From the NCBI GenBank assembly GCA_945875845.1, contig CAMCMB010000001.1, forward strand, positions 62,001 to 126,000: DNA of 64,000 bases, read 5' to 3'. Below are positions 45,869-64,000 of the stretch, in pieces. Each line of letters begins with the position of its first letter. The first letter of the stretch is position 1. This DNA is from Pirellula staleyi DSM 6068. Its GTDB lineage: Bacteria > Planctomycetota > Planctomycetia > Pirellulales > Pirellulaceae. The position numbers were made by a program, and so were the translations under genes. Under the pieces are notes generated by a model. That model was not told the DNA's origin and did not search any database. It was given only the letters and a program-made list of their open reading frames with translations.

Positions 45869-46609
45869 TCAAACCAGCAAGGATCCTCCCAAACAGACCC
45901 TCGCATTCGTGCGCGTGGTCATTTCACGGCGCATTGCTGTTAACGCGATCGCTCTGGCGATGGGATCATTGGGGCGGGACCAATCACTGTCCGACGGCAA
46001 TCGAACTGTCTCCACTTTAAGCACGCCGCGTTGTTCGAGATCTCGCAGAAACTCGGAATCCAAGCTGGGCTCGTGCGGCCATGTTACCAGACTTTGACTA
46101 AGTGGTTTCGGACTTTTCTTTCCTTCGATGGGTTGCTGATATTTCACGGCGATTCGACAGATTGCATCCATAACTCCGTCTGGTCGCCAATCATCGCCGA
46201 AGACAAGCCTCGCTCCGGCGCTCAACAACGATTCGCATAAGCGGATCGTTGCGTTCTTGACATCTTCAGGGTTGTATCCAATCTGGGACAACTCGACTGC
46301 GTGTTGCAACGATTCCCGGGGCATCGCCAAAGCGGATCGTACGTCGATGATGATGGCTGGGCCGCCATATTCTTCGCCCCATTCAAGTTCTTGAACGCAC
46401 CACGCACGTCGCTCGTAAACATCCGTCCGTAGCACGACAAGTACAGACTTCTTAATGCCGTTTTCCAAGACTTTCCGCCAGCGTGTACCGGGAAGGATGT
46501 CTTGAGCGTCATAGAATCGCTGTAAGAATGGGAGCGACTCAATTTGAGATTTCAAGGCGAGTGCAATGGGAGATCCATCGAGTTTCGCGTGACTAATGAA
46601 CAATCGCAA
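45869..46609 (-). CDS. TIR domain protein, last gene of the cluster
   Basis: A protein of about 246 residues. Residues 1-130 form a TIR domain: RLFISHAKLDG at the start, FYDAQDILPGTRW (box 2-like) and the helix RRAWCVQELEWGEE, whose glutamate (E74 or E76) fits the catalytic glutamate of NAD-cleaving TIR enzymes. The C-terminal 110 residues have no clear domain. There is no in-frame ATG or GTG near the domain start. Possible starts are TTG at 46609 or TTG at 46603, the latter six bases after GAGAAG. The frame is also continuous with the preceding TIR-nSTAND gene across one TAA at 46655-46657, so readthrough fusion is a second possibility. Confidence 0.8.
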   Translation of the reverse strand: MRLFISHAKLDGSPIALALKSQIESLPFLQRFYDAQDILPGTRWRKVLENGIKKSVLVVLRTDVYERRAWCVQELEWGEEYGGPAIIIDVRSALAMPRESLQHAVELSQIGYNPEDVKNATIRLCESLLSAGARLVFGDDWRPDGVMDAICRIAVKYQQPIEGKKSPKPLSQSLVTWPHEPSLDSEFLRDLEQRGVLKVETVRLPSDSDWSRPNDPIARAIALTAMRREMTTRTNARVCLGGSLLV

Positions 46610-46654
46610 CTTCTCGTTTGATCCATTCGCCAGGAGACTCGCACCGTTTTGAGA

Positions 46655-49600
46655 TTACTCGAAGACTTCAAGGTTATTGGGATCTCGGGCGGGGCTTAGA
46701 AAGGCGTCTGGTCCGATTCCCGCTGCTTTTGCGTTTTTAACAAGCGTCCAGACATCGCCTCCGAATTTAAGTCCGGTTTCTTTTTCGAGCAATGTCAGCA
46801 GGTATTTAGTTGGCTTCGCCGTACAGAATGGCGACTTTAACAAGTCTACCATCTCTATTTTCGTGAGAGCATCTGGCAAAGCATCAAGGGATTCAATCAA
46901 GCCGAGAAAGATCTGCTCGTTGATCTGTTTTTCCGTCCTTATCTGGATCAAGTCTTTCGCCTTTTGGGCTTCATTCTGAGGAATCCTTTTGGCCTGCGCT
47001 TTGACCCCCTCCAACAGGATCTTCAGCTCATTCTCGTCGTGGTCTTCTTGCAACCCCTTCAACAGGTATTCAAGTCCTCGAATCGCCTGTTTGACATCGA
47101 TTGCGTTTGCGAACTCCACCAAAGCTTCGCACAGGGCAGGGCGTGCTCTTTGATTCTCCGCTTTGGACTTAGCCGCCAGGATTTCTTTGAACGCAACGTC
47201 AATCTGGCCCGGTTCCATTTGGTCGGCAACGGACGGCCAAATTCGTGTAAGGGTCTCAATCGTCGTGGGATCGTCAGTGGCTCGAATCCAATCCGGGATA
47301 TTTTTAATCAGTCGATAGGTGATCGTTTTATCGCTTGGCTCGTTTCCGCGAATCATGAGTGGCGCAATCTCATTTAGACATAGTGCTTGACCCTTTTCTG
47401 CACGAAGTTGCACGGCGGTCTTCTCAACAGCTTTTGCCAAAGAGCGCATTTGAACGACATCGATTGTTTCAGTCATGGCGGTGATGAGACGACAGGCAAC
47501 CTTTGGAACGTCGACAGCAACGAATTCATCGTCTTTGAGTGTGGTGCAAATGGTGGCCAAACCGTGCGCCAATACTTGTTTCAGGAATGTTTCCTGGGTT
47601 TTGTCCAATTTATCGATGATCTTGTTGATCGCTGTTTGCCGGAGGGAGACTGAGGCATCGCGACATACGATTTCCAGCTTATCCACCCCGAATACGCTCT
47701 CGTCGGTTTCCTTTTCCAGCAACACGTCCAGCATTATATCAATCGTTTCATCGGCGATATTCTCGGGAATTTCTCCAGGTAATTGCGCTAAACTCTTCAC
47801 CAGATTCGCCACGTCGATCGGAAGAAGAGTAGGGGCCTTGAACTTGTTTTGAATGATCTGATAGGCCGCCGCAATTCTTTCCGAACGGACGGCCGTTTCC
47901 ATCCCTTGGATGCCACTGGCCATGACCTGGATCTTTCGCGAGTCATTCGTCGCTTCCATCTGAATCAGAATCAACTCCGCAGCCGCCTCAGCGGCTTCGA
48001 CCGTCAAATTTCCACCCACCGAGGCCATTGCCGACCCAAGTAATTGGATTGAATAATCTTGGTTCGCTTCTTTGAGCATCTCAAGCAGTCGGTTGAAGGC
48101 CGCGATACTATCCCGTTTCAGAAGCGGTGCTGGCAAAGCCTTGAGTCCGATGGCCAAGTGTTTCATTCCCGAGGGCGTGTCGTAATCTTTCATGACTGTG
48201 AGCAGTTTCGATTTGACCTGTTCCAAGTCTGCCTCGGCAATCTTGATCGGGTTCTCTCCTAATGATTTGGCCAGTAAGCTCAGGCTCCGGGGCCACGACT
48301 CTTTACGGATCAATTCTACTAAACGGTCGTTTGCGGTCCGCCCGTCTTGCTCGGTCAGCGTACCCTGTAAATTGCGGAGTCCCTGACAAAGTTCGAAAAT
48401 CGGATCGGCTTGGTCCGTCGCGCGCATCCCCTCCAGGAGGAGAGTGCCCCCCAGAATCGGGTTTTTCTGGCCGCAGTGAACAGCCGTAATCGACAGACAT
48501 CTCGCAATGTACTTCGATGTTTCCGAATCCTGATTCAGTTTCATCGCATTGAGGAATTCGTTCGCTCCCGTTTCGCAGTCTTTGATGTTCAGCCGTTTGA
48601 CCCCCTTGCGGCAGAGGTCACAAAGGCTCTCACGCATATTATCATGGGGATAAATCTTCATGCTTTGAATGATGAATTTAACTCCTTCCATCACTGTTGG
48701 GATTTCAACATGTTCCGGAAGCGAATTCAGACAGCCCTGAAGTGCGACAAATTCTCGGGGCTGGTTCACCATATCCTGCATCTTTCGCAGCAACAGGTCG
48801 CCAATCGTCCGGCCATCTTCCTGCGAGATTTTATTGGTGATTTGGTTGATCGCATCGCACAGTGCGGTTAAGTTGGCGGCACTTTTTGTCCGCTTCATCG
48901 CATCAATGATCTGAGCTCTCGCTTGTTGACTTTCCTCCTCAGACATCGATGCGATTGTCAAAACGAGATCCTCTTCCAACGCTTCGAGCTTTCGCGGATT
49001 CTCCTCGCCAATCATACTCTTTGACAAGATTTCCAACGCAGTGTTAGCAAACTCTTTGAACTCCTTCTCAGTGACGTTGAGGGCGACGCCGATCCGAACG
49101 GCAGCAAGCTTCAAAGATTCTGTCGACTTACTATCGTTCAACAAATACTTAATCGATTTAATAAAAACCGCACGATCCTTGTCAGCCAAACCGATAAGAG
49201 CCCGTGCCGCTTGGGGGGCGCGATTGATCAGACGATTCGCGTTGTCCTCTTTCAATGCGTTTGCTATTAGGTACTCACGCCGGGGTCCGTAGCCGTAGTG
49301 TTCTCGCTGAGCGCTTGCGATTTGCCAAAAGGCGTCGATTTCATTTCTTTCCAACGGTCCGGGCTCATTGCTTATACGATTCAACAAGCTGGTGGCATAT
49401 GTGTCCTCGACCTTGGTTTTGGCCGACTGTGCTTCTTTCTGAGCTTTCCATGCGAATCCAAAAGCAATCAACGCCACTGCCGCCAATGTCATGGCACCGA
49501 TTGACTGCCACCTTAATCGACGTGCGGAAGCAGCATGCTCGCTAGCCCGTTGCTTCTCACTCTCGGCGAGCTTCGTAAGAGTTTGGATCTCGCGCGCCTG

Positions 49601-51496
49601 GCGTTCGGCTTCTTCACGCTTTCCCCGATCTCGCAGTTCCAGACTCGCCGACAGAAACTCTCGCTCTTCCTGCGTCAAATCGGATTCAGGAAACTGAGAC
49701 CACTCCTCTGCTTCCGCCAACCGTATCCCTTGATACAGATAATTGGAGTCCCGACTGGAACCGCTCCATTCCGCCGCCGCTTCCGTTAAACGATGCTGCG
49801 TCCGCATCGACTCTCGTTCCGATTCAATCCACGTGCGCAGTTTGGACCAAGAGCGAATCAGTGCTTCGTGCGAGACCTCAACGAACGAATCCTTCTCGAC
49901 CGTGATTAACCTCACATTCGATAGTCGATTAATGATGGGTGAAATTACGTTGGCGTCCCCAAGCTGACTCATCGGAACCCTGCGCTTGGTGTCTTCGCTT
50001 CCTTCACCCGGTTGCGTCAGTCGCAAGAAGATCCGGCGACAGGTCTCTTGCTCGGCAGGACTCATGGCATCGAAAGTCGCATTCGCCTGCTGTTCGAGCG
50101 CCCCTTCCAAGCCCCCGATCGCCTTATAGGCGGCAATCGTCAGGCAGCGTCCTTCCCGTCGTTCCCAGAGCTCCTGCAAGGCATGCTGTAGCAGCGGCAA
50201 TGCGCCCGGCTGATTCTCAATTTCATGCAGTAGCATTTCGGTTAAACCACGTTCCAGTTCGAGCCCCACTAACCGAGCCGGTCGCTCAATGACTTCGCGC
50301 AGTTCGACCTCCGTCATGGGGCCGACCAATTCCTGGTGATCGGTTACCGCAGCAGCCAGTTGGGGATACGAAGCACATTTGCTGTAGAAATCGGCTCGCA
50401 TCGTCAGCACGACGATCGTTTTTCCTCCCGCGATTCCGGCTGCGTAAATCAAATTGTTGATGAATGCCTTTCGACGAGAGTCGGTGGAACTGATTTTGGA
50501 GACATCACGAAATGACCGACTCGCTCGACTACTCGTCACGTCGTCCGAATGCAGTGTAAAAACTTCTTCGAACTGATCAATTAACAAAACGATGCGTTGC
50601 GATTCGTCGGCTCCCCCGAGGGCCACGCGCGTCGCGAGATGCAATCGGTTCTCGTCCGACTCCATGTGCGTGATCAGATCCCCGACGTCATCGAAACGAG
50701 AACCGATCTTGGGATCACCGGTCAGTGCAACCGCTAGGCTTTCCAAAGGATCATTTCCCGGCCTGAAAATAATGATTGGCCAGTTTTCACTCCCTTCGAG
50801 CTTCCCATTTCGCAAGGCGGGAACGAGTCCCGCGCGCGCCAAAGACGATTTGCCGCTACCCGAGTCACCAACGATCGCCAGGAACCGATTTTCTCGCAGC
50901 GTTCCAGCGCCATCGAAGCCTTTGGTAGCCCGCAGTGCATTTAACATCCATTCGATACGGCCTTCACGACCGAAGAAGAACGATGCATGTTCGGGCTGGA
51001 AAGCCTGCAACCCCCGGTAAGGACATTGACCTTCATAAACAGCTCGACCCGGCGGAAGACCGGGAGGCAATCCCAGGATGCCGCTCTTCAGGCGATGATA
51101 GGCGTCTTCTTCATCGAGCGATTTGCGAAACTCGACCCAGGTCGAATTGAGAAGGAAGGCCGGCAATCGGCTTCGTTCTTCGCGAGTTCCACCAGGTAGC
51201 AACACAGGAATCACGCGAAAGTTTCCATCGCTCTGGCCAGTACGTCTCGCAATGGCCGCGCGAATCTCTTCATTCTGCCAGGGGCCAACACCGCTCGAAC
51301 CCAAAAACACCGCAACACATCCCGAATCTGCCAACGCCTGCTCCAGCGCCGTTTGGCTCGATTCGCCCGGGATCAATTGCCACTTGTCGAACCACGCTTC
51401 AAGCCCCTCGGATTTCAAGCGCCGCGCCAACTCTTCTACCAACGATACGTCATTACTGTTGTATGACACAAAGACATGAAACAGCCTGCTTGACAT
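46655..51496 (-). CDS. TIR - nSTAND1 NTPase - membrane - helical repeat protein
   Basis: A 1613-residue signal-transducing ATPase. Residues 1-125 are a TIR domain (HVFVSYNSNDVSLVEELARR; GPWQNEE with a candidate catalytic glutamate at 76-77). Residues 155-550 are an nSTAND1-type NTPase: CPYRGLQAFQPEHASFFFGR at 158-177, Walker A GDSGSGKSS at 210-218, Walker B VLLIDQFEE around 303-311, then a winged-helix-like part ending in VSHEALIRSWSKLRTW. A charged coiled coil (620-660) leads to one membrane helix (about 661-683). The remaining 930 residues are all-alpha, with recurring helical pairs like HEAT/ARM repeats, the expected sensor. Such proteins sense a trigger, oligomerise and activate the TIR. 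The family role in anti-phage defence is known; this protein's trigger is not. Confidence 0.9.
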   Translation of the reverse strand: MSSRLFHVFVSYNSNDVSLVEELARRLKSEGLEAWFDKWQLIPGESSQTALEQALADSGCVAVFLGSSGVGPWQNEEIRAAIARRTGQSDGNFRVIPVLLPGGTREERSRLPAFLLNSTWVEFRKSLDEEDAYHRLKSGILGLPPGLPPGRAVYEGQCPYRGLQAFQPEHASFFFGREGRIEWMLNALRATKGFDGAGTLRENRFLAIVGDSGSGKSSLARAGLVPALRNGKLEGSENWPIIIFRPGNDPLESLAVALTGDPKIGSRFDDVGDLITHMESDENRLHLATRVALGGADESQRIVLLIDQFEEVFTLHSDDVTSSRASRSFRDVSKISSTDSRRKAFINNLIYAAGIAGGKTIVVLTMRADFYSKCASYPQLAAAVTDHQELVGPMTEVELREVIERPARLVGLELERGLTEMLLHEIENQPGALPLLQHALQELWERREGRCLTIAAYKAIGGLEGALEQQANATFDAMSPAEQETCRRIFLRLTQPGEGSEDTKRRVPMSQLGDANVISPIINRLSNVRLITVEKDSFVEVSHEALIRSWSKLRTWIESERESMRTQHRLTEAAAEWSGSSRDSNYLYQGIRLAEAEEWSQFPESDLTQEEREFLSASLELRDRGKREEAERQAREIQTLTKLAESEKQRASEHAASARRLRWQSIGAMTLAAVALIAFGFAWKAQKEAQSAKTKVEDTYATSLLNRISNEPGPLERNEIDAFWQIASAQREHYGYGPRREYLIANALKEDNANRLINRAPQAARALIGLADKDRAVFIKSIKYLLNDSKSTESLKLAAVRIGVALNVTEKEFKEFANTALEILSKSMIGEENPRKLEALEEDLVLTIASMSEEESQQARAQIIDAMKRTKSAANLTALCDAINQITNKISQEDGRTIGDLLLRKMQDMVNQPREFVALQGCLNSLPEHVEIPTVMEGVKFIIQSMKIYPHDNMRESLCDLCRKGVKRLNIKDCETGANEFLNAMKLNQDSETSKYIARCLSITAVHCGQKNPILGGTLLLEGMRATDQADPIFELCQGLRNLQGTLTEQDGRTANDRLVELIRKESWPRSLSLLAKSLGENPIKIAEADLEQVKSKLLTVMKDYDTPSGMKHLAIGLKALPAPLLKRDSIAAFNRLLEMLKEANQDYSIQLLGSAMASVGGNLTVEAAEAAAELILIQMEATNDSRKIQVMASGIQGMETAVRSERIAAAYQIIQNKFKAPTLLPIDVANLVKSLAQLPGEIPENIADETIDIMLDVLLEKETDESVFGVDKLEIVCRDASVSLRQTAINKIIDKLDKTQETFLKQVLAHGLATICTTLKDDEFVAVDVPKVACRLITAMTETIDVVQMRSLAKAVEKTAVQLRAEKGQALCLNEIAPLMIRGNEPSDKTITYRLIKNIPDWIRATDDPTTIETLTRIWPSVADQMEPGQIDVAFKEILAAKSKAENQRARPALCEALVEFANAIDVKQAIRGLEYLLKGLQEDHDENELKILLEGVKAQAKRIPQNEAQKAKDLIQIRTEKQINEQIFLGLIESLDALPDALTKIEMVDLLKSPFCTAKPTKYLLTLLEKETGLKFGGDVWTLVKNAKAAGIGPDAFLSPARDPNNLEVFE

Positions 51497-51541: not shown

Positions 51542-52123
51542 TCAGGTTAGGAGGTCGCGAAACAAGAGACGGTATTGCAGATCCTGGGAAAGGCGTGTCT
51601 TGAGGTCCGCCGGGGCGTTCGGAAGATTGTTGGGAGTCCAGTTTTGCCAGAGAATTCGCGCGGCACCTTCTGTACTTGCCACGGGGAAGACAGGTATCGC
51701 GTCGCGTTTGCTAAAGATGTCCCACTCTTCTAACAGGCCCTCCATCCCTCCGATGAAAAAGCCTGCATCGAACGGAGTCGAGTGAATCATCTCGGTCCGC
51801 ATGAGTGTGAGGCTCGGGTCTCGACCTGCCGGATCCTCCCGTGTCCACCTCAAGTTGCGGAACTTTTTGGCGACGTCTGGAATTTTTTTCTCGAAGTAAC
51901 TCGACTGATAGATAATGACGTTGTCCGTAGCATTCAGTTCTCGCGCGGCGTGCTCGACCAGGGGCGAGATCGCGGGGTGACCGCCAAAGACGAGCATGCG
52001 GTCGCGAACCGTCTCGGCGACAAGAGCCCGGATCGCCTCGCGAATCGCCACAGGTTCCGGCACGAAGCGATGGAGTTCTCGTTCCGGCACGCTCCCCGAG
52101 AGAAAGATTGCGCCTTTATTCAT
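51542..52123 (-). CDS. SLOG domain protein (SLOG cluster 3-like)
   Basis: A 193-residue Rossmann-like protein. It starts AIFLSGSVPERE and has the signature LVFGGHPAISPLVEHAARE near 44-62, both typical of the SLOG cluster 3 family related to LOG, TRPM and Smf/DprA nucleotide-binding domains. Such domains are predicted to bind or process nucleotide or NAD-derived signals and are often next to TIR or other effector genes. The C-terminal half (MEGLLEEWDIFSKRDAIPVFPVA) is also family-like. The gene overlaps the upstream TIR gene by 8 bases and is 45 bases before the TIR-nSTAND gene, a tight conflict-system arrangement. Confidence 0.82.
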   Translation of the reverse strand: MNKGAIFLSGSVPERELHRFVPEPVAIREAIRALVAETVRDRMLVFGGHPAISPLVEHAARELNATDNVIIYQSSYFEKKIPDVAKKFRNLRWTREDPAGRDPSLTLMRTEMIHSTPFDAGFFIGGMEGLLEEWDIFSKRDAIPVFPVASTEGAARILWQNWTPNNLPNAPADLKTRLSQDLQYRLLFRDLLT

Positions 52124-53330
52124 TGGGTTTCAGCCAGTTATTGAGGAGTTCGGTTCGTAGCGTCTTGAGCTGGACATGATCGTTGAGCCAGCCAAGCTGA
52201 CTCACTCGATTCTCCATGATACCCAAGCCGTCATAAAGAATCCTATAACCTCCAAAGTCACTCACTGGTATTTCGCCTGTTTTCAATTTTTGCTCGCATT
52301 CGTAGATGACCGAGGAATCGGGCAGGCCCATGATTGGAAAAGCTGTCGAGATGACCTTGCCGTTCCGCAGAATCTCCACGGGACCTGCTGGATGAATGTT
52401 GACATCCAGTTTGAATCGAGACGCCTCGGCTCGAAGATACGATATCACTCGAATTCGTCGGGCGCCGAGCGATCGGATCCTTGCCTGTTCAGCCAAATCA
52501 GCAATTTGTTCGAGCGCTTCAGCTTTGAGTGTCGCATCGAGACCGATCGTCTTGTTCCGATCATGAAAGCGGTCCGGCTCCAAGGCGTAGCGGAAACTGA
52601 ATTCCGTACCGGGAGTGGCCAAAAGTTTGTAGCCGGAGGGTTCGGACGCGTCGGGAACCGTCCAAGCCAATTGGAGAACCCCCAGCCCCAACTGGTTCAC
52701 CAGGTCCAGTTCTTCGTGGACCCAAACCGATTGAAGAGCGTTTGGACTATCGAGAAGAATAACTAGGTCGATATTCGCCAATCGCTCGTGCAGCACGTCC
52801 TGGAACGGAACCCCGCGTTCGACCGAGGCCGTGTCGAGAAAAACTTGATAACCCCTATCGAACAGCGTGTGCGCCAGTTGCTTGGCAATACCGGCTGAGT
52901 CGCTACGTTTATAGCTAATAAAGGCTTGGCGAAGGTCACGCGTCAGGCCGAACGCCTTCAAAACGTCACCCGTCAAGCGAGAATCGTCCCACTCGATGCC
53001 GTTGACGGACTGCAACCTCTTAGGAATCTGCTGGCCAAATGTGTTCAGGCTGGCGACAAGCGGCAATGTCGTCACACCCATGGACAATAGCGAATCGAGA
53101 GTGGCCAAGTGATCCCTCTCGTCGAGAAACCCGGGGTCGCCGCCATACCACAGTCCAACGATGCTGCACTTGGAGTTTAGCCGCGATCGCTCCGCTACTC
53201 CGAGAACTGCCAAGTCCGAAGTCGGATCGAGATTGAGATCGCAGAACCCGTCGTATAATTCTCGACGGAGGCGATTTCCAAACCGATTCGCGTTCGGACC
53301 CAGCGCGATCAATTGATAATGAAGTGACAC
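52116..53330 (-). CDS. TIR domain protein with N-terminal alpha/beta domain
   Basis: A 404-residue protein starting at GTG 53330. Residues 1-130 form an alpha/beta domain with HYQLIALGPNA and IVGLWYGGDPG, which may be a degenerate second TIR or a ligand domain. Residues 133-225 are a TIR domain: RQAFISYKRSDSAGIAKQLA, YQVFLDTASVERG, and SVWVHEELDLV with the candidate catalytic E206/E207. The C-terminal 180 residues are predicted alpha/beta without a family I recognise. The start lies 3 bases beyond the AGE-like gene stop, and its end overlaps the SLOG gene, so it is translationally coupled on both sides. Confidence 0.82.
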   Translation of the reverse strand: MSLHYQLIALGPNANRFGNRLRRELYDGFCDLNLDPTSDLAVLGVAERSRLNSKCSIVGLWYGGDPGFLDERDHLATLDSLLSMGVTTLPLVASLNTFGQQIPKRLQSVNGIEWDDSRLTGDVLKAFGLTRDLRQAFISYKRSDSAGIAKQLAHTLFDRGYQVFLDTASVERGVPFQDVLHERLANIDLVILLDSPNALQSVWVHEELDLVNQLGLGVLQLAWTVPDASEPSGYKLLATPGTEFSFRYALEPDRFHDRNKTIGLDATLKAEALEQIADLAEQARIRSLGARRIRVISYLRAEASRFKLDVNIHPAGPVEILRNGKVISTAFPIMGLPDSSVIYECEQKLKTGEIPVSDFGGYRILYDGLGIMENRVSQLGWLNDHVQLKTLRTELLNNWLKPNE

Positions 53331-55417: not shown

Positions 55418-57946
55418 CTAGACTCGCTTCAGGACGATGATTCCATTGGCGGGAATGACCGCACTCAATGTGCCCCCTGAAGAAGGGATTTCGTCTCCGT
55501 CGTTCCCCACATTATCACCGCCATAACGTGAGGAATCACTATCGAAGATTTCTTTCCACCGGCCGTCCGAAAGACTCGGGTGGGAAATGCTGTAGCCATT
55601 TTGAAATGGGTGATTATTGAGACTTGCCAGGATGATGTAGTCTTCACCCTCGCCCCAGCGCCTCCAGACAAGCACTCGATTGGCCTCATGCACATGCAGA
55701 ATGTCGATCGACCGTGACTTCAGGCCTGGGCTGTTCAGCCGAAGGTGAATCAGGTCTTTGTAGAACGCGAACAGGAACTTTCCGCTCGTGTCACGACCAC
55801 CAGGCAAGTCCTCGCGATTGACGAAAATCTGGTTATAAATGAAGTCCTTCTCGAATCCGACTTCTTCACCGAAAAGGAACATCGGGGTTCCGCCCGAAAG
55901 CAGGCTCGCTCCAAAGGCAAAGCGACAGCGAGCCTCGGCGTATCGGCGCGTTTCGCCGATCAGAGGTGCCCCATTGGCAGCCACAACGATCGTCCGTTTC
56001 GTACCCTGAGCATTGCCCGCCTCGTCATGAGACTCGTTGTAGACAACGCAATTGCCTCCGCTGGCACCAAGCACCCTCGCAAAGTAGTCCATCGCCAATG
56101 CTCGATCGTCGCCCAAGCTGGCGGTTTTGATCAGTTTGGCGTAGTCGCTTCCCTTGTCGGTGTCGCCGATCAGATGATGATAAAAATCGGCATACCAAAC
56201 CTTGTCGAAGCCTAAGCCACCGATGTCGGTCGATTGAGTGACCTTGTCCCAACCCGAGTGGTCCTCGGCTGTCATGATGACGTCGGGATTAATCAGCTTC
56301 AGCGTGCTCGTCAATTCGCGGAGAAATTTTGCACCGAACAGGTTGGCATGTTGAACCGGACTACCGTCGGCATGGAGAACGTTGTAGGAGTGGATCGATG
56401 TGGTCTGGTCAACACGGAACCCATCAATATGGAACTCTTCCATGAGCATCACGGCGCTGCTGATAAACATCTTCCGCACGGTTTCATCATAGAACCGTGG
56501 CGCGAAGCCCGTCGACATGTTGTCGACACATCCGCCGAGATCCTTTTCGGCACCAGAAACCTTTGACTGGTAATCGGGGTAGTCGGTGGGCGCACCCTCG
56601 TACCAGTAATACGGGTTCTTCACTGCGTCATTCGTATCATAGGCCCACTCGGCCCGCCCGGCGTTGGGTGTGAAGTGGTTGTAGACCACGTCGAAAATGA
56701 CCGCAATCCCACGACGATGGCACGCCTTGATGAAATATTTGTATTGGTCGCGACCGCCGCCGCTGTACTCAATCGCAAAGTAGTGAGAGGTTCCGTAACC
56801 CCAATTCTCTTCGCCACTGAATTGGGACATCGGCAGCAACTCGACGGCGTTCACCCCCAACTCAACTAAGTAGTCTAGCAGATCAATGGCGTCCTTCAGT
56901 GTGCCTGGCCCCTTCTTGTTCGGACCTCCGAGCGCCCCCACGTGCAATTCATAGATAACTAGGTCATCCACATGACTTGGGACGGGCTTCGCGTTACCGA
57001 TCAGGTCCTTCTCATCCTTCCAGAAATCATCCGACGACACCCAGTCCGACTCGGGCCAGCGTCCCTTAGGATCCTCGAAGAAGGCAGTAACTTTGTCGGA
57101 ATCAACCACGGCTGAACAACTGACGGTCCCGTCTAATTTGGAGGTCAGGTCCAAATAGGATTTCCCGTCGGGGTCGAATCTTCCGCTGCCGACCTGACAG
57201 CGCGAGTACAAGTCAGTTTTGTACGCGATGGTACCGTCATCCTTTGTGATACGGTACATATAAGGCTTATGGTCGAATGCAGCAAAGTCCGCGAGTCGTG
57301 GGTCGTTTTCATCTGAGACCCAGACCCCGTCGTTACCTCGCCTCATTGGGAACGGCCCTCGCTTGGGGTGGATTCCCTCTCCGTTGTCAGCGATGTATCC
57401 CCCCGCGATCACCGTCTTCGGCAACGCTTCGTCTTGAGGTCTCCGCTTCGCATCGGTGATATCGAAAAACGCGCCACAGACAACTTCGACCGCCCGAGCG
57501 TTGGGAGCCCATACCGAAAACTGGATACCGTCCTTCGCCGCCCCCGCGCGCCGATGCTTCTGCGCGCCAAGGCGACGGTTATGAGTCAGGAAATAATGCT
57601 CCTTCTGAATGGTACCAGCGACGGGCTGTTGCAGCTTGAACGAGCGAGTCCGATCAGACGAAAGGTGGTCATTGACCTCGGTCGTGATCCCCCAGCGGCC
57701 TTCGCCAGCAGGACCGTCGACAAGGACACCCCAATGAAACGTATGGTCGATGCCCGAGTCGTCCAAGTCGACATCAGCGACGAAGCATGGGCAACCGTCC
57801 TCACCAAGTTGACGTCTCATCGGGATGGTCGACCAGGTCTCCGACATCTGACCATGTCCGTCCCAACTCCCGGTCAACGACGCAGCGGACAGCACATCGC
57901 GTTTCAGGCTTGGCGAGTAGATGAATTGAATGGAAGTCTTTGTCAT
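55418..57946 (-). CDS. GH13 alpha-glucan branching enzyme-like protein
   Basis: An 842-residue cytosolic protein. N-terminal residues 1-110 look like a starch-binding beta-sandwich, residues 135-230 a CBM48-type domain (IQFSVWAPNARAVEVV), residues about 330-730 the GH13 (beta/alpha)8 domain and the end a beta-sandwich. Catalytic residues by GH13 pattern are region I DVVYNHF, nucleophile D513 in GFRVDQTT, acid/base E561 in VIMTAEDHSGWD and transition-state aspartate D641 in NESHDEAG. This is the layout of glycogen branching and trehalohydrolase-like enzymes; exact activity is open. The ATG at 57946 is favoured over 57973 by an AGGA upstream. No glycogen synthase or debranching gene is seen nearby. 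Confidence 0.85.
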   Translation of the reverse strand: MTKTSIQFIYSPSLKRDVLSAASLTGSWDGHGQMSETWSTIPMRRQLGEDGCPCFVADVDLDDSGIDHTFHWGVLVDGPAGEGRWGITTEVNDHLSSDRTRSFKLQQPVAGTIQKEHYFLTHNRRLGAQKHRRAGAAKDGIQFSVWAPNARAVEVVCGAFFDITDAKRRPQDEALPKTVIAGGYIADNGEGIHPKRGPFPMRRGNDGVWVSDENDPRLADFAAFDHKPYMYRITKDDGTIAYKTDLYSRCQVGSGRFDPDGKSYLDLTSKLDGTVSCSAVVDSDKVTAFFEDPKGRWPESDWVSSDDFWKDEKDLIGNAKPVPSHVDDLVIYELHVGALGGPNKKGPGTLKDAIDLLDYLVELGVNAVELLPMSQFSGEENWGYGTSHYFAIEYSGGGRDQYKYFIKACHRRGIAVIFDVVYNHFTPNAGRAEWAYDTNDAVKNPYYWYEGAPTDYPDYQSKVSGAEKDLGGCVDNMSTGFAPRFYDETVRKMFISSAVMLMEEFHIDGFRVDQTTSIHSYNVLHADGSPVQHANLFGAKFLRELTSTLKLINPDVIMTAEDHSGWDKVTQSTDIGGLGFDKVWYADFYHHLIGDTDKGSDYAKLIKTASLGDDRALAMDYFARVLGASGGNCVVYNESHDEAGNAQGTKRTIVVAANGAPLIGETRRYAEARCRFAFGASLLSGGTPMFLFGEEVGFEKDFIYNQIFVNREDLPGGRDTSGKFLFAFYKDLIHLRLNSPGLKSRSIDILHVHEANRVLVWRRWGEGEDYIILASLNNHPFQNGYSISHPSLSDGRWKEIFDSDSSRYGGDNVGNDGDEIPSSGGTLSAVIPANGIIVLKRV

Positions 57947-58220
57947 TGAGTTAATCCTAGAGTTGTGGCTCATGCGATGACCGAATCGCGTTCAATACGG
58001 AATTCGGTGTCGACCGATCCGCAACGTGTCTAATGTCCCTGTTTCAGGAAAAGCATTTATCATCAGTGAATCCAGAATACGCGACAAGATCCCTGCTGCA
58101 AGTGTCGATCTGGTGGCGATTCCAACGTTGACCGGCAGGTTTTTTCACATCGCCAAACAGGATGCCGAAACCATGTCCAATCCAAGCTTTCCACAATCCT
58201 GGAGCGACGGTTGAACTCAA

Positions 58221-59828
58221 TCAAGGATGAACTGAATACGCGCCGGTCCGAAGGTCGACGGTGAAAACGTAGTCCCCGCTTTGTTGGGCGTGGCACTGTA
58301 GCGCCTGCGGGTTGCCATGCGTCGTCAGGTGCCCATAGTGCCTTAGATCTTCGATTCGCGAAGTTTGCGGGTCAGGGTTGCGTCCCGAGTAGTCGCGACC
58401 ATATCCGTCCAACTCGTAATCGGCGAAGGTCCAGGTCCAACCCCAACGGTTCGCAGTGTACTTGTACGAATACGTTTTCCCGGCTTCTAAGACAACTTTC
58501 TTTTGGAACACGGTATCCGAGACCCGAACCATGTCGTTTGCCGGATTTGTTGCATCCCAGTTGCCAACCGGGTCACCAACCAATTGCAGTGAATCGACGG
58601 TCACACATGGTTCGACCGGCCATCCATCCAAGGATTCGATGGAGAATTCGTCCGTTGCCGAATCGTATTCGAACCGGTAAGCCCCCTCTTGTTTCACCTC
58701 GAAGAAAATATTCGGTTCATTCGGCTTGCCGTGCCAGGCGCGGCCAAGCCACTTGGTCGGACTCGACGGAAACAGCCAGCAGCCGAGCGCCATCGTATCG
58801 AGGAACAGTTCCTGGCTGATGGCAAAATTGGCAACGTAGACACCCGGTTTGAGGTCGACGGTCTTGATCCACGCCCCTGGTCGAACGCCACTTTGAAGCA
58901 TCGTCCGGTCAGCCTTCGTCGGGTCGAACGAATCTGCTGCGTAGACGGAACCGAGAAGCTGAAACGACTTGATGTCATTCAAGTATTCCACAGGCTTGCC
59001 TGATGCCTGCACTTCGAACTCAAAACTCAGCGGGTTCATACGGATTGTGTAGTCGCCGTCCTGAACCACCCGGATTGTGATTGCCGAATGTCGGCTTTGT
59101 CCACCGCTACTGCCGAATCCAGTTCCACCGCACAACCGACCGTGCTTGGGATTGTTAAAGGCTGCGAATCCCCAATCCTCGTTGTGGTTCGCCGAGAAAA
59201 GGAATTGATAGACTCCATCGTGCCGAAAGCTGATTCCACCATCCGTCCGTAAGGGGATAGTCAATTCCCACCAACTGCCGTTTTTGGTCATCTCATGGTG
59301 AAGGCGAGTTTCATCGAATTTCTCGAAGTCACTCTCGTTATCCCAGACAAATCCATTCAGTTGGACCGTCTCGATCGCCGTCAGATATTTTGGTGCTGGG
59401 AGAATGTCAAACGCCATGCTGGACGGCACGAAGCTGAAGCGATAGACGCCGTCGCGTTCGACCTTGATCATGACATTGTGTGCCTGATGCGCGTCTTCAC
59501 CCGTAACCAGTTGGGGTTTACCATCCGCATCCACTTGCTGATGGTTCGCCTTGTGCATCTGCCGCAGATCATGGTTTGTGGCGAATCGAAAGGCGTACAC
59601 GCCATCCCCGTGTCGGCCCCCGTTGGCCCTAAGCTCGACCTCCTTAAGAAATCCGTCCGACTCCTTCGTCATGTTGTTGTCAGGCAAGAAAGGATTCCAA
59701 CGACCGCGATCATTGTTCACTGTTCCAAGCAGCTGGGCGGTAGTGAGAAGCTCGTCGTCGTCCAGCAGAGGGATAGATACGCCGCGTGTTAACTTGTTGA
59801 CATGTTCGATTATCGGAATTGCTGGCAT
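58221..59828 (-). CDS. Cytosolic protein of four tandem carbohydrate-binding-like modules
   Basis: A 535-residue protein with no signal peptide or membrane segment. Four modules of about 120 residues can be lined up at 28-145, 150-283, 287-405 and 410-533. Each starts with a strand-plus-turn like AQLLGTVNND, VQLNGFVWDN, FQLLGSVYAA or LQLVGDPVGN. Each ends with a strand pair: VERDGVYRFSFVPSSMAFDI, VVQDGDYTIRMNPLSFEFEV, VKQEGAYRFEYDSATDEFSI or AQQSGDYVFTVDLRTGAYSV. The pattern resembles starch-binding modules of the CBM48/CBM20 or SusE/F type. No catalytic domain is present. It is 2 bases downstream of the VOC gene and upstream of GH13, so it may tether the glucan or enzymes of the cluster. I know no named family for it. 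Confidence 0.75.
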   Translation of the reverse strand: MPAIPIIEHVNKLTRGVSIPLLDDDELLTTAQLLGTVNNDRGRWNPFLPDNNMTKESDGFLKEVELRANGGRHGDGVYAFRFATNHDLRQMHKANHQQVDADGKPQLVTGEDAHQAHNVMIKVERDGVYRFSFVPSSMAFDILPAPKYLTAIETVQLNGFVWDNESDFEKFDETRLHHEMTKNGSWWELTIPLRTDGGISFRHDGVYQFLFSANHNEDWGFAAFNNPKHGRLCGGTGFGSSGGQSRHSAITIRVVQDGDYTIRMNPLSFEFEVQASGKPVEYLNDIKSFQLLGSVYAADSFDPTKADRTMLQSGVRPGAWIKTVDLKPGVYVANFAISQELFLDTMALGCWLFPSSPTKWLGRAWHGKPNEPNIFFEVKQEGAYRFEYDSATDEFSIESLDGWPVEPCVTVDSLQLVGDPVGNWDATNPANDMVRVSDTVFQKKVVLEAGKTYSYKYTANRWGWTWTFADYELDGYGRDYSGRNPDPQTSRIEDLRHYGHLTTHGNPQALQCHAQQSGDYVFTVDLRTGAYSVHP

Positions 59829-59830: not shown

Positions 59831-60268
59831 CTACGCACCCATTTCCTCGGCTGATTGGTCAGTAAATCCCTGGCTGATCTCGACAATATTGCCATCCGGG
59901 TCGGCGATCCAGACTGTCTTCCAGCCGGGAATGAAGGCCTCAAAACTTGCCGGTCCCAGCGTCACCTTGGCCTGTTCGCCGATCTCGGCCAATTTGGCGT
60001 CGACATCGACCACCTTAAAAGCCAAATGACGAATGCCAGGATACATCGGACCGTCTTTTACCGGGAGTAAGACCGGCGAGGTCTCAGTGGCTTTAAAGAG
60101 TTCCAAATAGAACAAGCAATCCTGCATTTTCAGGAACACGATTTCGCCGCCATCAGGCAACGGGACGACGCGGGCACGCCGAAAACCGAAGTATTGTTGA
60201 TGGAACCGCTCGGTGACGATTGGCTCACGGCAAGCCAGGGCCACATGGGAAAAGACCTGTAAACTCAT
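59831..60268 (-). CDS. VOC superfamily (glyoxalase/dioxygenase-like) protein
   Basis: A 145-residue protein of the vicinal oxygen chelate fold with two beta-alpha-beta-beta-beta modules: FSHVALACREPIVTERFHQQYFGF, then FYLELF, then GIRHLAFKVVDVDAKLAE and VWIADPDGNIVEISQGF. Metal-ligand candidates are the histidines in FSHVAL and GIRHLAF and the glutamates in FYLELF and NIVEIS. The fold supports metal-dependent glyoxalases, dioxygenases and isomerases; the reaction is not determined. It is 41 bases after an NTF2-like gene and 2 bases before the four-module protein. Confidence 0.87.
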   Translation of the reverse strand: MSLQVFSHVALACREPIVTERFHQQYFGFRRARVVPLPDGGEIVFLKMQDCLFYLELFKATETSPVLLPVKDGPMYPGIRHLAFKVVDVDAKLAEIGEQAKVTLGPASFEAFIPGWKTVWIADPDGNIVEISQGFTDQSAEEMGA

Positions 60269-60309
60269 ATTCTTTCCTTGCTCGCTTTTCGCGGCTGACT
60301 CGAAGTCGA

Positions 60310-60702
60310 TTAAGCAATAGAGCCATCGGGATATTGAGTCATGCCCGCAAAATGAATTGCAATTTTTCCGTCACGAAGTACCCAACTGTCGGCGAATCGC
60401 ATCTTTGACTCCCCGTCAACGGCTTTCATCGTGATCGCTTCCACGATCATCAGCGTTTGAGGGTTGTCAGTTTCCGCCCAGAAGGCGATGTCCGTTTCCA
60501 AACCTTGAATCCCAAGGATTCCCTGCTGATGCTCTCGCAATTGATCGCGGCCTCGGAAATATTTTGGTGTTTTCAGGAAACTGCTGATCAGCAAAGCGTC
60601 ATCGGCGTACTGGTCGAGCAGCGACTCGATGTCTTTCTTCAGAATGAACTCGATGTGCTGGCGGTACATGCGACCGAGTTGTGTGTCCGGTATATTTTTC
60701 AT
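60310..60702 (-). CDS. SnoaL/NTF2-like protein 1
   Basis: A 130-residue cone-shaped NTF2-like (SnoaL) protein: helix 1 with MYRQHIEFILKKDIESLLDQYADDALL, then beta strands and the end DSWVLRDGKIAIHFAG. An AAGGAG about 9 bases upstream of the ATG supports the start. The family includes isomerases, hydratases and enzyme partners. It is similar to the NTF2-like protein at 62432-62821, especially in D-x-W-x-LR-x-GKIA-x-H near the C-terminus, so the two are probable paralogues. It lies between the GMC oxidoreductase and the VOC gene. Confidence 0.85.
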   Translation of the reverse strand: MKNIPDTQLGRMYRQHIEFILKKDIESLLDQYADDALLISSFLKTPKYFRGRDQLREHQQGILGIQGLETDIAFWAETDNPQTLMIVEAITMKAVDGESKMRFADSWVLRDGKIAIHFAGMTQYPDGSIA

Positions 60703-60761: not shown

Positions 60762-62285
60762 TTATCCGCCGAGGATCATGTCAGCGCCTCGGGCACCAAT
60801 CATATAGCATGCGGCGACGGTGTTGCCGCTGGTCACTTTTGGCATCACCGATCCATCAATGACGCGTAACGCCTCGACGCCATGGACTCGTAGCCGAGGA
60901 TCTACCACAGAGTTTTGGTCATGGCCCATCCGGCAGGTGCCAGCAGGGTGCCAGAGCGTCGACGCCTGCGCACGAATGAATGCTTCCGGGTCGACACTGC
61001 CCGGGGCAAGCTCACCGCGATTGAGTTCCTTAAAAGCTTTGGTGGTAGCGATGCGGCGAACCAACTTGAGTGTTTCCAGGAATGTCTCGACATCTGCCCG
61101 TGCATACAAGTAATTCGGATTGACAATTGGCGGATCGAGGGGGTCACTTGAACGAAGAGTCACGGTACCGACGCTCTCTGGTTGAATGAGGATGGCAAGA
61201 AAGATGCAAGCGGGTCCGCCGAAATTGAGGGCAGACATCAGCGGCGTGGGAACAGCCGGGGTAAACAGAAGTTGCATGTCAGGAGGAGCATCAGGTGTGC
61301 TTGTCCGCGTGTTGACAAACAAGATGTTACCGGTCAGCAATTGTGGATTGGGTCGGAGCGTCGCGGTTCGGAAGACGAAAGGGACTTGAACGTGGTCTTG
61401 AAGATTTCGCCCAACTCCGGGTAAATCAACAACAAGTGGGATGTTGTGCTTGTTTAACTGCTCGACAGGCCCGATGCCGGACAACATTAATAATTTGGGA
61501 GACTGCAGAGCGCCGGCACTGACGATCACCTCGCGCTCGACGCGAACTTGATGCCTTTTACCATCAAGTTGGTATTCGACGCCGACAGCCCGTTTTGCGT
61601 CGATCAGAAGCCGGGTCACTTCGGCTCCTGTTTTCAAAGTCAAGTTCGGACGCCCACGGATGGGATCGAGGTAGGCCACTGCTGCGCTGCATCGCTTGCC
61701 GTCTTTTCCGATGTGGAAGTGCAACAACCCTGCGCCATTCTCCTGCCGCGCGCCGTTATAATCCCAGTGCGGACCGTCGTATCCCAATTCCGTCGCGCCT
61801 GCCAGGAATTCTTCTGATCGCATGGCAGCATCGGGACAGACCCGGACGCTGATCGGCCCCCCTACACCGTGGTACTCCGAGGCACCGCCTTCGAAATCTT
61901 CCATCTTCTTGTATTCGGCGACCGCCGCCTCGTACGTCCACCCGTCCGCTCCAAGAGCGGTCCAGCAATCAAAGTTCCTGCGATTGCCTCGCACCCACAT
62001 CATGGCGTTGATGGTCGTTCCGCCTCCAACCACTTTTCCCTGGTTGAACGTGATCTGCCGCCCGCCCAAACCTGGCTGGGCTTCCGTCGAAAACTTCCAG
62101 TCCAGAGCAGACCCCCACAACCGAACAAAACCGCCGATGTCGGCGATGTTGGGGTCGGTAGCTGGACCTCCCGCCTCAAGCACCATCACACGCGTCCCTG
62201 GCTTAGCGCTGAGCCGGTTGGCAACAACACTCCCAGCGGCACCGCACCCTACGACGACATAATCCATTGATTCTTCCGATGCCAT
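60762..62285 (-). CDS. GMC family FAD oxidoreductase
   Basis: A 507-residue flavoenzyme of the glucose-methanol-choline family. The ADP-binding motif VVVGCGAAGSVVANRLS is at 10-26, followed by the signature GGGTTINAMMWVRGN near 85-100. GALQSPKLLMLSGIGP lies near 258-273, and the C-terminal active-site region HPAGTCRMG lies near 440 with GSVMPKVTSGNTVAACYMIGARGADMI at the end. The family oxidises alcohols, aldehydes or sugars. The start at 62285 precedes MDYVVVGCG by six residues. There is no signal peptide, so it is cytosolic. It is flanked by two NTF2-like genes on the same strand, so a shared pathway is plausible; the substrate is unknown. Confidence 0.9.
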   Translation of the reverse strand: MASEESMDYVVVGCGAAGSVVANRLSAKPGTRVMVLEAGGPATDPNIADIGGFVRLWGSALDWKFSTEAQPGLGGRQITFNQGKVVGGGTTINAMMWVRGNRRNFDCWTALGADGWTYEAAVAEYKKMEDFEGGASEYHGVGGPISVRVCPDAAMRSEEFLAGATELGYDGPHWDYNGARQENGAGLLHFHIGKDGKRCSAAVAYLDPIRGRPNLTLKTGAEVTRLLIDAKRAVGVEYQLDGKRHQVRVEREVIVSAGALQSPKLLMLSGIGPVEQLNKHNIPLVVDLPGVGRNLQDHVQVPFVFRTATLRPNPQLLTGNILFVNTRTSTPDAPPDMQLLFTPAVPTPLMSALNFGGPACIFLAILIQPESVGTVTLRSSDPLDPPIVNPNYLYARADVETFLETLKLVRRIATTKAFKELNRGELAPGSVDPEAFIRAQASTLWHPAGTCRMGHDQNSVVDPRLRVHGVEALRVIDGSVMPKVTSGNTVAACYMIGARGADMILGG

Positions 62286-62431
62286 TTCTTGATCCCCAAC
62301 ACTACACTTTAACTGACAATTCGAAGGTAATAAGCAATTGACAATTCGGCGCGAACAAGTCGTGTTTGAAAGCGACGAACATGGACTCTCTCGCCTATTA
62401 AACGCACAGAATGCGATTAGTCCTCAATTTC

Positions 62432-62821
62432 TTATCCAGTCTTATGAGCAAAGCTGTAATGAACGGCGATCTTCCCATGGCGAAGATACCAGCCGTCGCC
62501 TACCACCCACCTGCCCGTTTGGGAGGTGAAGGTTGCCTGAAAGAAAACCGACTCATCTGTCCCAGCAAATTGGTCTATGGACTCAACCTGGATTGATCCA
62601 TGCCAGGCAAGATACTTCTTAAAGAATTCCTTGAGCGCCGGACGACCACGCACGATATGGGGCGGCGGAGTATCCAACATGTCAAAGGGGGAAATCAGAA
62701 CTCCATCTTCGGCGTATTGGTTGTCGATCATGCCGTCGACATCGTTGCGCAGAATATAGTCCATCTGCTTTTCATAAAACTTTCGTGTCTCCGAAGCCTC
62801 TTCATAGTTGGTAACGTCCAT
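62432..62821 (-). CDS. SnoaL/NTF2-like protein 2
   Basis: A 129-residue NTF2-like protein: helix with KFYEKQMDYILRNDVDGMIDNQYAEDGVLI, then a PP-rich loop (DMLDTPPPHIVRGR), and the end VGDGWYLRHGKIAVHYSF. It resembles the protein at 60310-60702 across the first helix (QYAEDGVLIS versus QYADDALLIS) and near the C-terminus, so recent or old duplication is likely. The 146-base gap to the GMC gene and the 206-base gap upstream leave room for separate promoters. Confidence 0.85.
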   Translation of the reverse strand: MDVTNYEEASETRKFYEKQMDYILRNDVDGMIDNQYAEDGVLISPFDMLDTPPPHIVRGRPALKEFFKKYLAWHGSIQVESIDQFAGTDESVFFQATFTSQTGRWVVGDGWYLRHGKIAVHYSFAHKTG

Positions 62822-63027
62822 CGTTCATCCCATGGAATTGAAGTTTGCAGCGTTGTCAAGAACCACGGTTGGTCCTTACGGTATAAAACTGTTTGACGCG
62901 GTAGCTCGTAACTTCCGAAATTTCTTTCGGCTATTTGAATTTGTACGACTCGCCGCAATGATAACTCGCCTAGACTTGAGCCGTGTCGACTCGTGGATAC
63001 GCAGTCGCGTAAAGCAACCGCTCAACG

Positions 63028-63480
63028 TTAAAGAGTTGCAAATCCAGGCGCGTACTTGAATGGCTCAACAGTTGCGTTGTAACTGACGATCTCCAGTTTG
63101 TAGGAGTTTTTTGTCGATGGTCTTATGGTCCAGCGTTGCGTGGCATCCATCGAGACGCGTTTGCTTTTAGCCGCAGGCGGCTCCCACCAACTTGCCTGCC
63201 AGCCGACGACGATGTCAACCACAGCCAACTCACCGGTGATATTCGCCTTCACACTTTGAACATTATGATTTTCGTCGAAGAACAGGTTCGTAACGCGGTG
63301 GTACCACTTTTTGAAACTCGCAGTATCCCGAATCGCACCGTCTGGAAAATCCATTTTTAAACCCGCGTCAGCAAGATACGACGAGATTTCTTCAAGTGGC
63401 ACATGAAAGTCCAACGCACGAAACCAGACGGCGACGAAATCGATTATTTGTTTTTCGTTCAATGATATCAGTTCGGTCAT
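63028..63480 (-). CDS. SnoaL/NTF2-like protein 3
   Basis: A 150-residue protein of the NTF2-like/SnoaL type with a long first helix (KQIIDFVAVWFRALDFHVPLEEISSYLADAG), a TASFKKWYHRVTNLFFDENHNV motif in the middle and strands ending SYNATVEPF. It is more distant from the other two. The start ATG at 63480 has GGAG about 6 bases upstream; a GTG at 63492 would add four residues. It is 53 bases downstream of the ThDP enzyme gene and so is probably in the same transcript. Confidence 0.8.
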   Translation of the reverse strand: MTELISLNEKQIIDFVAVWFRALDFHVPLEEISSYLADAGLKMDFPDGAIRDTASFKKWYHRVTNLFFDENHNVQSVKANITGELAVVDIVVGWQASWWEPPAAKSKRVSMDATQRWTIRPSTKNSYKLEIVSYNATVEPFKYAPGFATL

Positions 63481-63533
63481 GCGTTTCTCCACGAAGTTAA
63501 ATTTTCAGTCGGATCACAGTTGTTCCGTCCCTC

Positions 63534-64000
63534 TCATTGACCACAGCGGACGCCGATCAATTCAGGGTGAACGTCACCCTCGATCGCAACGTCCAACAGG
63601 AACGGACCTTGGTGCTGCAGGGCTTGACGAATTGCCGGGCCAACCTGATCGACGGTCTCGATCCGTACGGCTTCCATTCCCATTCCCCGCGCTAAATCAA
63701 CGAAACGAAGTTCCGGTTTCGATAAGTCGAAGCTCAGAGGATAATCCCGAGGAGTCATTCCTCGTTCTTTCCAGTACGCTAACATGTTCACTTGCAGCAG
63801 GCGGTATGATCGATTGTTGCAGATGACAAATTTAGCGTCCACTTTATGCCGCACCGCCGTCCAGAGACTTTGGATGGTATACATCGAGCCGCCATCCCCA
63901 CTGAAGCCGATGACCGTCTTGTCCGGGTTGGCTAACTTGACGCCAATTGCACCCGGTAGACCGACTCCCAGTGAGCCGCCGCGACTTTGGAAATAGTGCC
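63534..64000 (-). CDS. Thiamine diphosphate-dependent enzyme, C-terminal part
   Basis: The frame is open to the end of the window, so the start is beyond it. It shows the C-terminal ThDP-binding domain: SRGGSLGVGLPGAIGVKLA, then the metal/ThDP motif GDGGSMYTIQSL-...-ICNN (the GDG...NN pattern), followed by YWKERGMTPRDYP and FVDLARGMGMEAVRIE. This group includes acetolactate synthase, benzoylformate decarboxylase and other C-C bond-forming or breaking enzymes. The missing N-terminus prevents a finer call. It is the first visible gene of the long minus-strand cluster. Confidence 0.88.
   Translation of the reverse strand, partial: HYFQSRGGSLGVGLPGAIGVKLANPDKTVIGFSGDGGSMYTIQSLWTAVRHKVDAKFVICNNRSYRLLQVNMLAYWKERGMTPRDYPLSFDLSKPELRFVDLARGMGMEAVRIETVDQVGPAIRQALQHQGPFLLDVAIEGDVHPELIGVRCGQ

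What the first reader, a model, noticed from the sequence alone, without database searches (positions are those of the whole stretch)
45869..64000. Co-directional cluster joining TIR/SLOG/STAND conflict genes with alpha-glucan and small-molecule enzymes
At least 13 genes are on one strand, many with gaps of 2-60 bases or overlaps. Four of them (TIR, SLOG, TIR-nSTAND, TIR) are standard parts of NAD/nucleotide-centred immune or signalling systems. The AGE-fold protein directly precedes the TIR gene by 3 bases. Before it come GH13, a four-module glucan-binding-like protein, VOC, NTF2-like, GMC and ThDP genes, all apparently cytosolic. I know of no described defence system with this set. The link could mean a modified sugar or glucan acts as signal, trigger or protected substrate. 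The alternative is two unrelated operons placed end to end: gaps of 274 bases (57947-58220) and 206 bases (62822-63027) are possible breaks.
Basis: partly seen in the sequence, partly recalled or inferred. Interest (0 to 1): 0.85.

Follow-up and report, generated by a model that had tools for sequence, protein, structure and literature searches.

The report
Thoeris-type immune genes inside sugar-enzyme operon
A planctomycete carries, as one inserted block of DNA, an antiviral-type signalling gene pair directly behind a set of sugar-processing enzyme genes, and a similar partnership turns up in three other distantly related bacteria, which suggests that the two halves work together.

Summary
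Fourteen minus-strand genes run from a DJ-1 protein beyond the window's right end to a TIR-SLOG gene at 45869, inside one 21.8-kb insert flanked by a 329-bp direct repeat; two congeners carry the empty site. Two 'conflict' genes are nameable: 52116-53330 and 51542-52123 pass NCBIfam cut-offs for Thoeris type III ThcB4 and ThcA. The other half is a cytosolic sugar-enzyme cassette (AGE-fold protein, GH13, DJ-1, ThDP, GMC, VOC, SnoaL); related AGE loci number 64 here, from many phyla, mostly without TIR genes. Three of them (Acidobacteriaceae, Thiohalocapsa, an unclassified genome) also carry TIR genes directly behind AGE. The four TIR-linked AGE proteins form one clade (85/83; three of them 99/95) although the other three are only 50-55% identical to the window's. 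The GH13 tree sets the unclassified genome apart. ThcB-ThcA pairs also live without the cassette on plasmids. I read this as a horizontally spread composite, a TIR-SLOG signalling module wired to a sugar-metabolic cassette. Linkage is shown; functional coupling and biochemistry are inferred.

The parts
45447..45775 (.). left copy of a 329-bp direct repeat (3' end of the HXXSHH-family gene and a few bases beyond); right copy at G000:C1:129555-129883, beyond the window
   Evidence: 97.6% identity; one copy only in the empty sites L113 and L114
45776..64000 (.). insert, as far as the window shows it; continues to G000:C1:129554 (21,779 bp in all)
   Evidence: flanks joined through one repeat copy in congeners G1086 and G1088
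45869..46609 (-). TIR-SLOG protein (TIR_2 + LD_cluster2; the SLOG match covers only 16-159 of 264 profile positions)
   Evidence: Pfam
46655..51496 (-). TIR-nSTAND1 protein, 1613 aa
   Evidence: Pfam TIR_2 and nSTAND1 (9e-125)
51542..52123 (-). ThcA, SLOG-only protein of Thoeris type III
   Evidence: NCBIfam NF058525 160.5 bits, cut-off 110; Pfam LD_cluster3
52116..53330 (-). ThcB4, TIR protein of Thoeris type III
   Evidence: NCBIfam NF058526 241.1 bits, cut-off 220; PADLOC ThsB model PDLC00434 1.4e-54
53334..55319 (-). AGE-fold protein: N-terminal beta domain + (alpha/alpha)6 barrel like sugar 2-epimerases/isomerases
55418..57973 (-). CBM48-GH13 alpha-glucan enzyme; acidic residues at the usual GH13 places (D522, E570, D650; motif assignment recalled)
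   Evidence: Pfam, NCBIfam, motif positions
58221..59828 (-). four-module X25-like protein; a 55% identical relative lies about 2.8 kb from AGE in another planctomycete (G207, L088/L089)
59831..60268 (-). VOC/glyoxalase-fold protein of the cassette
   Evidence: Pfam; relatives
60310..60702 (-). SnoaL-like protein; 71-75% identical relatives in TIR-less cassettes of three planctomycetes
60762..62285 (-). GMC oxidoreductase
   Evidence: Pfam
62432..62821 (-). second SnoaL-like protein
   Evidence: Pfam
63028..63492 (-). small NTF2-like protein found in 13 of 64 related loci (no Pfam hit; NTF2-like is by resemblance)
63534..64000 (-). ThDP enzyme, 3' part; the gene begins at window-scale 65246 and is preceded by DJ-1 at 65274-66125
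   Evidence: Pfam; NCBIfam

Best explanation
This is one horizontally acquired composite operon in which a Thoeris type III-like module (ThcB4 TIR enzyme and ThcA SLOG receptor, with a TIR-nSTAND and a TIR-SLOG as extra sensors or signal makers) has been joined to a mobile cytosolic sugar-enzyme cassette (AGE-fold protein, GH13, DJ-1, ThDP, GMC, VOC, SnoaL). Proposed working: infection or damage is sensed by the nSTAND/TIR proteins; TIR enzymes cut NAD+ and make an ADP-ribose-derived signal; the SLOG proteins bind it and switch on or gate the cassette enzymes, which convert intracellular alpha-glucan or its sugar products into a changed or reactive small molecule that stops the infected cell or the invader. 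Shown: gene content, one-piece insertion, linkage in four lineages. Inferred: co-transcription, NADase activity, signal binding, control of the enzymes, the product and its effect.
For: One 21.8-kb insert with a 329-bp direct repeat; empty site in 2 of 20 congeners searched. Recurrent linkage: L045 (SnoaL-Ank)-GH13-AGE-TIR-SLOG; L049 GH13-AGE-TIR-SLOG-DJ1; L015 contig ThcB-ThcA-DJ1-ThDP-EthD-(EthD-like)-(1.6 kb unassigned)-(SnoaL-Ank-like)-DJ1-GH13-TIR-AGE-TIR-TIR-nSTAND (the L015 ThcB/ThcA by BLAST to the window proteins only). AGE trees: the four linked proteins on one side of a branch, support 92 among 72 rows and 85/83 among 33 of those rows (82% of 200 bootstrap trees), three of them 99/95. 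ThcB of window and L015 pair at 92/93, 43% identical against 23-28% for the window protein to nine plasmid ThcBs. In 62 loci with 700 bp downstream of AGE the next gene is DJ-1 in 55, GH13 in 2, TIR in 3, other in 2; a co-directional TIR within 300 bp is expected 0.006 times. No SIR2, macro or caspase domain among the cluster proteins scanned with Pfam (DJ-1 with NCBIfam only), so the SLOG receptor has no usual effector domain beside it.
Against: Most related AGE loci have no TIR gene beside AGE, and ThcB-ThcA occurs without AGE or GH13 in the nine plasmid loci opened, so neither needs the other. Two of those nine carry other candidate effectors nearby: a CBASS phospholipase upstream in L119 and L120, a macro-domain gene in L119, a SIR2 gene in L120. 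Only four composites were found; if they go back to one joining event, the adjacency is a single draw (P about 0.006). In the GH13 tree L015 falls apart from the other three (0% of 200 bootstrap trees with one clade). All four linked ThcBs together have only 66/70 and ThcAs 55/33. The TIR-SLOG pairs of L045 and L049 score below the ThcB4/ThcA cut-offs (77 and 93 of 220; 31 and 45 of 110). L049's contig has four further TIR_2 hits within 50 kb, so island clustering could explain that case. No expression, structure or biochemical data tie SLOG to the enzymes.
Confidence: 0.5

Rival explanations
1. Island cargo. The sugar cassette and a Thoeris type III-like system are two accessory modules that travel together on mobile elements; they lie side by side and may share a transcript, but the defence genes only protect host or element and do not act with the enzymes.
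For: The window block is an insert with direct repeats. AGE relatives occur on 19 plasmids, 2 of them typed conjugative, and ThcB relatives on 29, 18 of them conjugative, separately in the rows listed. L049 sits in a TIR-rich stretch. Most AGE loci have no TIR beside AGE.
Against: TIR or TIR/SLOG genes lie between cassette genes in L049 (AGE-TIR-SLOG-DJ1) and L015 (GH13-TIR-AGE) with gaps of at most about 0.2 kb; the linked AGEs form one clade that keeps TIR genes through gene-order change and about 45-50% sequence change.
Confidence: 0.35
2. Guard or addiction. The cassette does its usual job (stress or secondary metabolism) and the TIR/SLOG proteins watch it, firing when a cassette metabolite rises or the cassette is lost or blocked.
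For: The cassette stands without TIR genes elsewhere; TIR and nSTAND families are typical sensors (recalled).
Against: No direct evidence; the ThcB-ThcA relatives on plasmids have no such cassette beside them to guard.
Confidence: 0.1
3. Two unrelated operons placed end to end by chance in this genome.
For: A 247-bp gap between the four-module gene and GH13; TIR-less cassettes in other planctomycetes.
Against: The large gap does not fall at the AGE/TIR border, which is 3 bp; an AGE/TIR border recurs in three other lineages.
Confidence: 0.05

Closest known systems
Thoeris type III (ThcA/ThcB families of NCBIfam NF058525, NF058526)
   Same: ThcB4 and ThcA above curated cut-offs, adjacent and in the same order as on plasmids
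   Different: Each of the nine plasmid loci opened has at least one further TIR gene in the stretch, mostly small, and no AGE or GH13 among the listed features; here the further TIR domains are fused to nSTAND1 and SLOG, and the pair follows AGE by 3 bp
Thoeris types I, II and IV
   Same: TIR enzyme next to a nucleotide-binding receptor (passages of PMC12948488 and PMC12847820)
   Different: No SIR2, macro or caspase-like effector domain among the cluster proteins scanned
AGE/DJ-1/ThDP/GH13 sugar cassette without TIR (e.g. Nostoc sp. ATCC 53789 plasmid pNsp_a, L090)
   Same: AGE, DJ-1, ThDP, GMC, NTF2-like, GH13 in one co-directional run
   Different: No TIR, SLOG or nSTAND gene among the 24 listed features and no TIR profile hit; carries EthD, Nif11-like leader peptides and hydrolases instead
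AGE superfamily sugar epimerases/isomerases (mannose isomerase 5x32, cellobiose 2-epimerase 3wkf, glucose 2-epimerase 8h1k)
   Different: 14-17% identity and an extra N-terminal beta domain of about 110 residues; substrate unknown

Membership tests
Thoeris type III | ThcA SLOG protein at the curated cut-off | tested here: met
   160.5 bits vs 110
Thoeris type III | ThcB4 TIR protein at the curated cut-off | tested here: met
   241.1 bits vs 220
Thoeris type III | small stand-alone TIR partners, as near ThcB4 on plasmids (my reading; not taken from a definition in print) | tested here: not met
   the TIR profile hits only three ORFs of the window and none of L002: ThcB4, TIR-nSTAND1 and TIR-SLOG
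Thoeris type III | TIR NAD+ cleavage and a signal bound by ThcA; phage protection | not testable with these tools
   a Glu a few residues after a Trp is present in all three window TIRs (positions; motif recalled), no assay
Thoeris type I | SIR2-SLOG ThsA effector | tested here: not met
   no SIR2 domain in Pfam scans of the cluster proteins
Thoeris types II and IV | macro-TM or caspase-like effector | tested here: not met
   none in Pfam scans of the cluster proteins
AGE (N-acylglucosamine 2-epimerase) superfamily, for 53334-55319 | AGE fold | tested here: met
AGE (N-acylglucosamine 2-epimerase) superfamily, for 53334-55319 | epimerase/isomerase activity | not testable with these tools
   His408 and His555 invariant in 38 sequences; equivalence to known catalytic His not mapped
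AGE/DJ-1/ThDP/GH13 cassette | co-directional AGE, DJ-1, GH13 and ThDP genes | tested here: met
   the short DJ-1 paralogue (DJ1a) that usually follows AGE gave no hit here

The most novel reading that the evidence does not exclude
An immune pathway whose executing arm is a biosynthetic sugar cassette: TIR enzymes make an ADP-ribose-derived signal (possibly an ADP-ribose conjugate of a cassette metabolite, by analogy with His-ADPR), SLOG receptors read it, and the AGE/GH13/GMC/ThDP/DJ-1 enzymes turn stored alpha-glucan into a small molecule that blocks phage or kills the infected cell.
Probability: 0.22. Interest if true: 0.92.

Novelty: new variant of a known kind. Interest (0 to 1): 0.72.

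Why it matters
ThcA is a SLOG-only protein and no effector gene is shared by the nine plasmid loci I opened, so what type III-like Thoeris executes is unclear from sequence. A lineage in which a ThcB/ThcA-type pair is welded to a defined set of sugar enzymes offers a concrete candidate effector arm and a way to test it. It also points to a widespread mobile sugar cassette, seen here in loci from many bacterial phyla (and one short contig of an archaeal MAG), for which my paper searches found no description.

Tried and rejected
Literature for Thoeris type III / ThcA / ThcB: search listings and passages of three papers; none defined the type, so the name rests on NCBIfam. Literature for the cassette: no paper held 3 of the 6 terms; one search showed nothing to the point. 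More composites: AGE profile in the orders of the three hosts (1 of 102, 8 of 195, 1 of 200 genomes at E <= 1e-100, the known hosts included); the 8 loci L104-L111 (7 genomes, one of them that of L030) show no TIR hit in about 1.5-kb flanks. Viral contigs: no relative of AGE. Planctomycetes: AGE in 4 of 392 (E <= 1e-60) and ThcA in 1 of 392 genomes, own included; same family, AGE 5 of 149 and the TIR protein 1 of 149. TIR genes that I did not count as linked: L013, about 1.7 kb upstream of AGE on the same strand with an opposite-strand ORF between; L058 and an LRR-Roc-COR-TIR gene of L049, both on the opposite strand. nSTAND hits on the opposite strand in L054, L058 and L065 were likewise not counted. 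Structure of the four-module protein: pLDDT 39, not used. SLOG for the N-terminal part of L015:8371-9750: suspected by eye, not found by Pfam, so counted only as TIR. Genes upstream of AGE in other loci show no shared theme: 55 of 63 candidate ORFs were scanned (six cassette genes and two tiny ORFs left out), and no family matched more than 2 of 55 (first 25 of 73 families shown). Promoter/terminator scan uninformative. An alignment of the AGE protein with itself was useless.
Full report
What is there. On the minus strand a co-directional run of 14 genes goes from a DJ-1 protein (window-scale 66125) through a ThDP enzyme, an NTF2-like protein, SnoaL, GMC, SnoaL, VOC, a four-module X25-like protein, GH13, an AGE-fold protein, a TIR protein, a SLOG protein, a TIR-nSTAND1 and a TIR-SLOG protein ending at 45869. 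Distances across the disputed border are small: GH13 to AGE 98 bp, AGE to TIR 3 bp, TIR/SLOG overlap 8 bp, then 45 and 45 bp. The TIR at 52116-53330 and the SLOG at 51542-52123 are not anonymous: they exceed the NCBIfam cut-offs for Thoeris type III ThcB4 and ThcA, and PADLOC places the TIR in a ThsB model.

One insert. The 329 bp at the end of the gene left of the cluster are repeated (97.6%) at C1:129555-129883. In two of 20 congeners searched (G1086, G1088) the flanks are joined through a single copy of this repeat, and the 21,779 bp between the copies, the whole cluster, are not there; a little further right these two carry about 1 kb and 1.4 kb of other DNA. Four more congeners match about 3.3 kb of the left flank at 83%, but their right-flank matches lie on other contigs or, for G1087, reach little beyond the repeat, so they do not bear on the site. 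Both halves thus form one present/absent block in this lineage. This alone does not show that they work together.

The link recurs. Three of the 64 loci have a TIR gene directly after AGE: L015, L045 and L049. L045 (Acidobacteriaceae) reads SnoaL-ankyrin, GH13, AGE, TIR, SLOG. L049 (Thiohalocapsa) reads GH13, AGE, TIR, SLOG, DJ-1, with SLOG and DJ-1 overlapping by 4 bp or about 65 bp apart depending on the start chosen. The L015 contig reads ThcB, ThcA, (0.5 kb), DJ-1, ThDP, EthD, EthD-like, (1.6 kb unassigned), SnoaL-ankyrin-like, DJ-1, GH13, TIR, AGE, TIR, TIR, nSTAND1. Its ThcB and ThcA are 43% and 51% identical to the window's, against 23-28% and 34-42% for nine plasmid pairs. The pairs of L045 and L049 match the ThcB4 and ThcA models but stay below the cut-offs, and their SLOGs match LD_cluster2 best. 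So the TIR/SLOG parts differ while the partnership stays.

Common descent. In AGE trees the four linked proteins fall on one side of a branch (72 rows, SH-aLRT 92; 33 of these rows, chosen by hand to thin the set, 85/83), and window + L045 + L049 have 99/95. The GH13 tree keeps window, L045 and L049 together (92/89) but not L015. The ThcB tree pairs window with L015 (92/93); all four linked ThcBs together have only 66/70, and the ThcA tree is poorly resolved. The simplest reading is one old joining followed by horizontal spread and reshuffling, with a possible second joining or GH13 replacement in L015. If it was one event, chance adjacency has P about 0.006, using 184 TIR_2 hits in the genomes of 50 of the 64 loci. 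What argues for function is retention over about 45-50% sequence change and gene-order change, in hosts of different phyla.

Against a single obligate system. Most AGE loci have no TIR gene beside AGE. On plasmids 29 records hold a ThcB relative, 29 a ThcA relative and 19 an AGE relative; no AGE accession (19 of 19 listed) appears among the ThcB or ThcA rows (25 of 29 listed each). The nine ThcB-ThcA plasmid loci I opened have no AGE or GH13 among their listed features, in gene tables that are incomplete. Two of the nine have other candidate effectors near: a CBASS phospholipase upstream (L119, L120), a macro-domain gene (L119) and a SIR2 gene (L120). L049's contig holds four TIR_2 hits within 50 kb besides the one beside AGE.

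Mechanism. In the passages I saw on other Thoeris types (PMC12948488, PMC12847820), TIR proteins make ADP-ribose-derived signals that a receptor in the same operon binds. ThcA is SLOG-only. I propose that here the SLOG receptor gates the sugar enzymes. This step is inference; I give the functional unit 0.5, island cargo 0.35.

Noticed in passing
L009-L072; L090 (Nostoc sp. ATCC 53789 plasmid pNsp_a): A widely scattered AGE/DJ-1/DJ-1/ThDP/GMC/GH13 cassette, in some loci with EthD, NTF2/SnoaL, Nif11-like leader peptides, ankyrin-prenyltransferase-fold proteins or SMP-30; my paper searches found no description of it.
   Followed up: partly
window 42055-42168 (about 42018-42168): A dispersed repeat of about 110-150 bp occurs at roughly 85-95% identity in many places of this genome and of congeners G1086 and G1088.
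   Followed up: no
L049:2471-5938 (-): An LRR-Roc-COR-TIR (ROCO-like) protein on the opposite strand, upstream of the Thiohalocapsa composite, in a TIR-rich stretch.
   Followed up: no
L091 (Sinorhizobium meliloti plasmid), L093 (Sphingobium plasmid): ThcB-ThcA pairs with four (L091) and three (L093) small TIR genes near them on conjugative plasmids.
   Followed up: partly
L119 (Pantoea plasmid), L120 (Cupriavidus plasmid): A CBASS phospholipase gene with a TIR gene lies upstream of ThcB-ThcA in both; L119 also has a macro-domain gene and L120 a SIR2 gene downstream, possible alternative effectors.
   Followed up: no
L002:2441-3430 (-): A protein with a sub-threshold BON-domain match upstream of DJ-1 inside the insert; parts of the DNA in and just beyond it recur elsewhere in the genome.
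   Followed up: partly
window 45869-46609: The SLOG part of the last gene covers only the first 60% of its Pfam profile and the gene stops 93 bp inside the insert border; it may be truncated.
   Followed up: no
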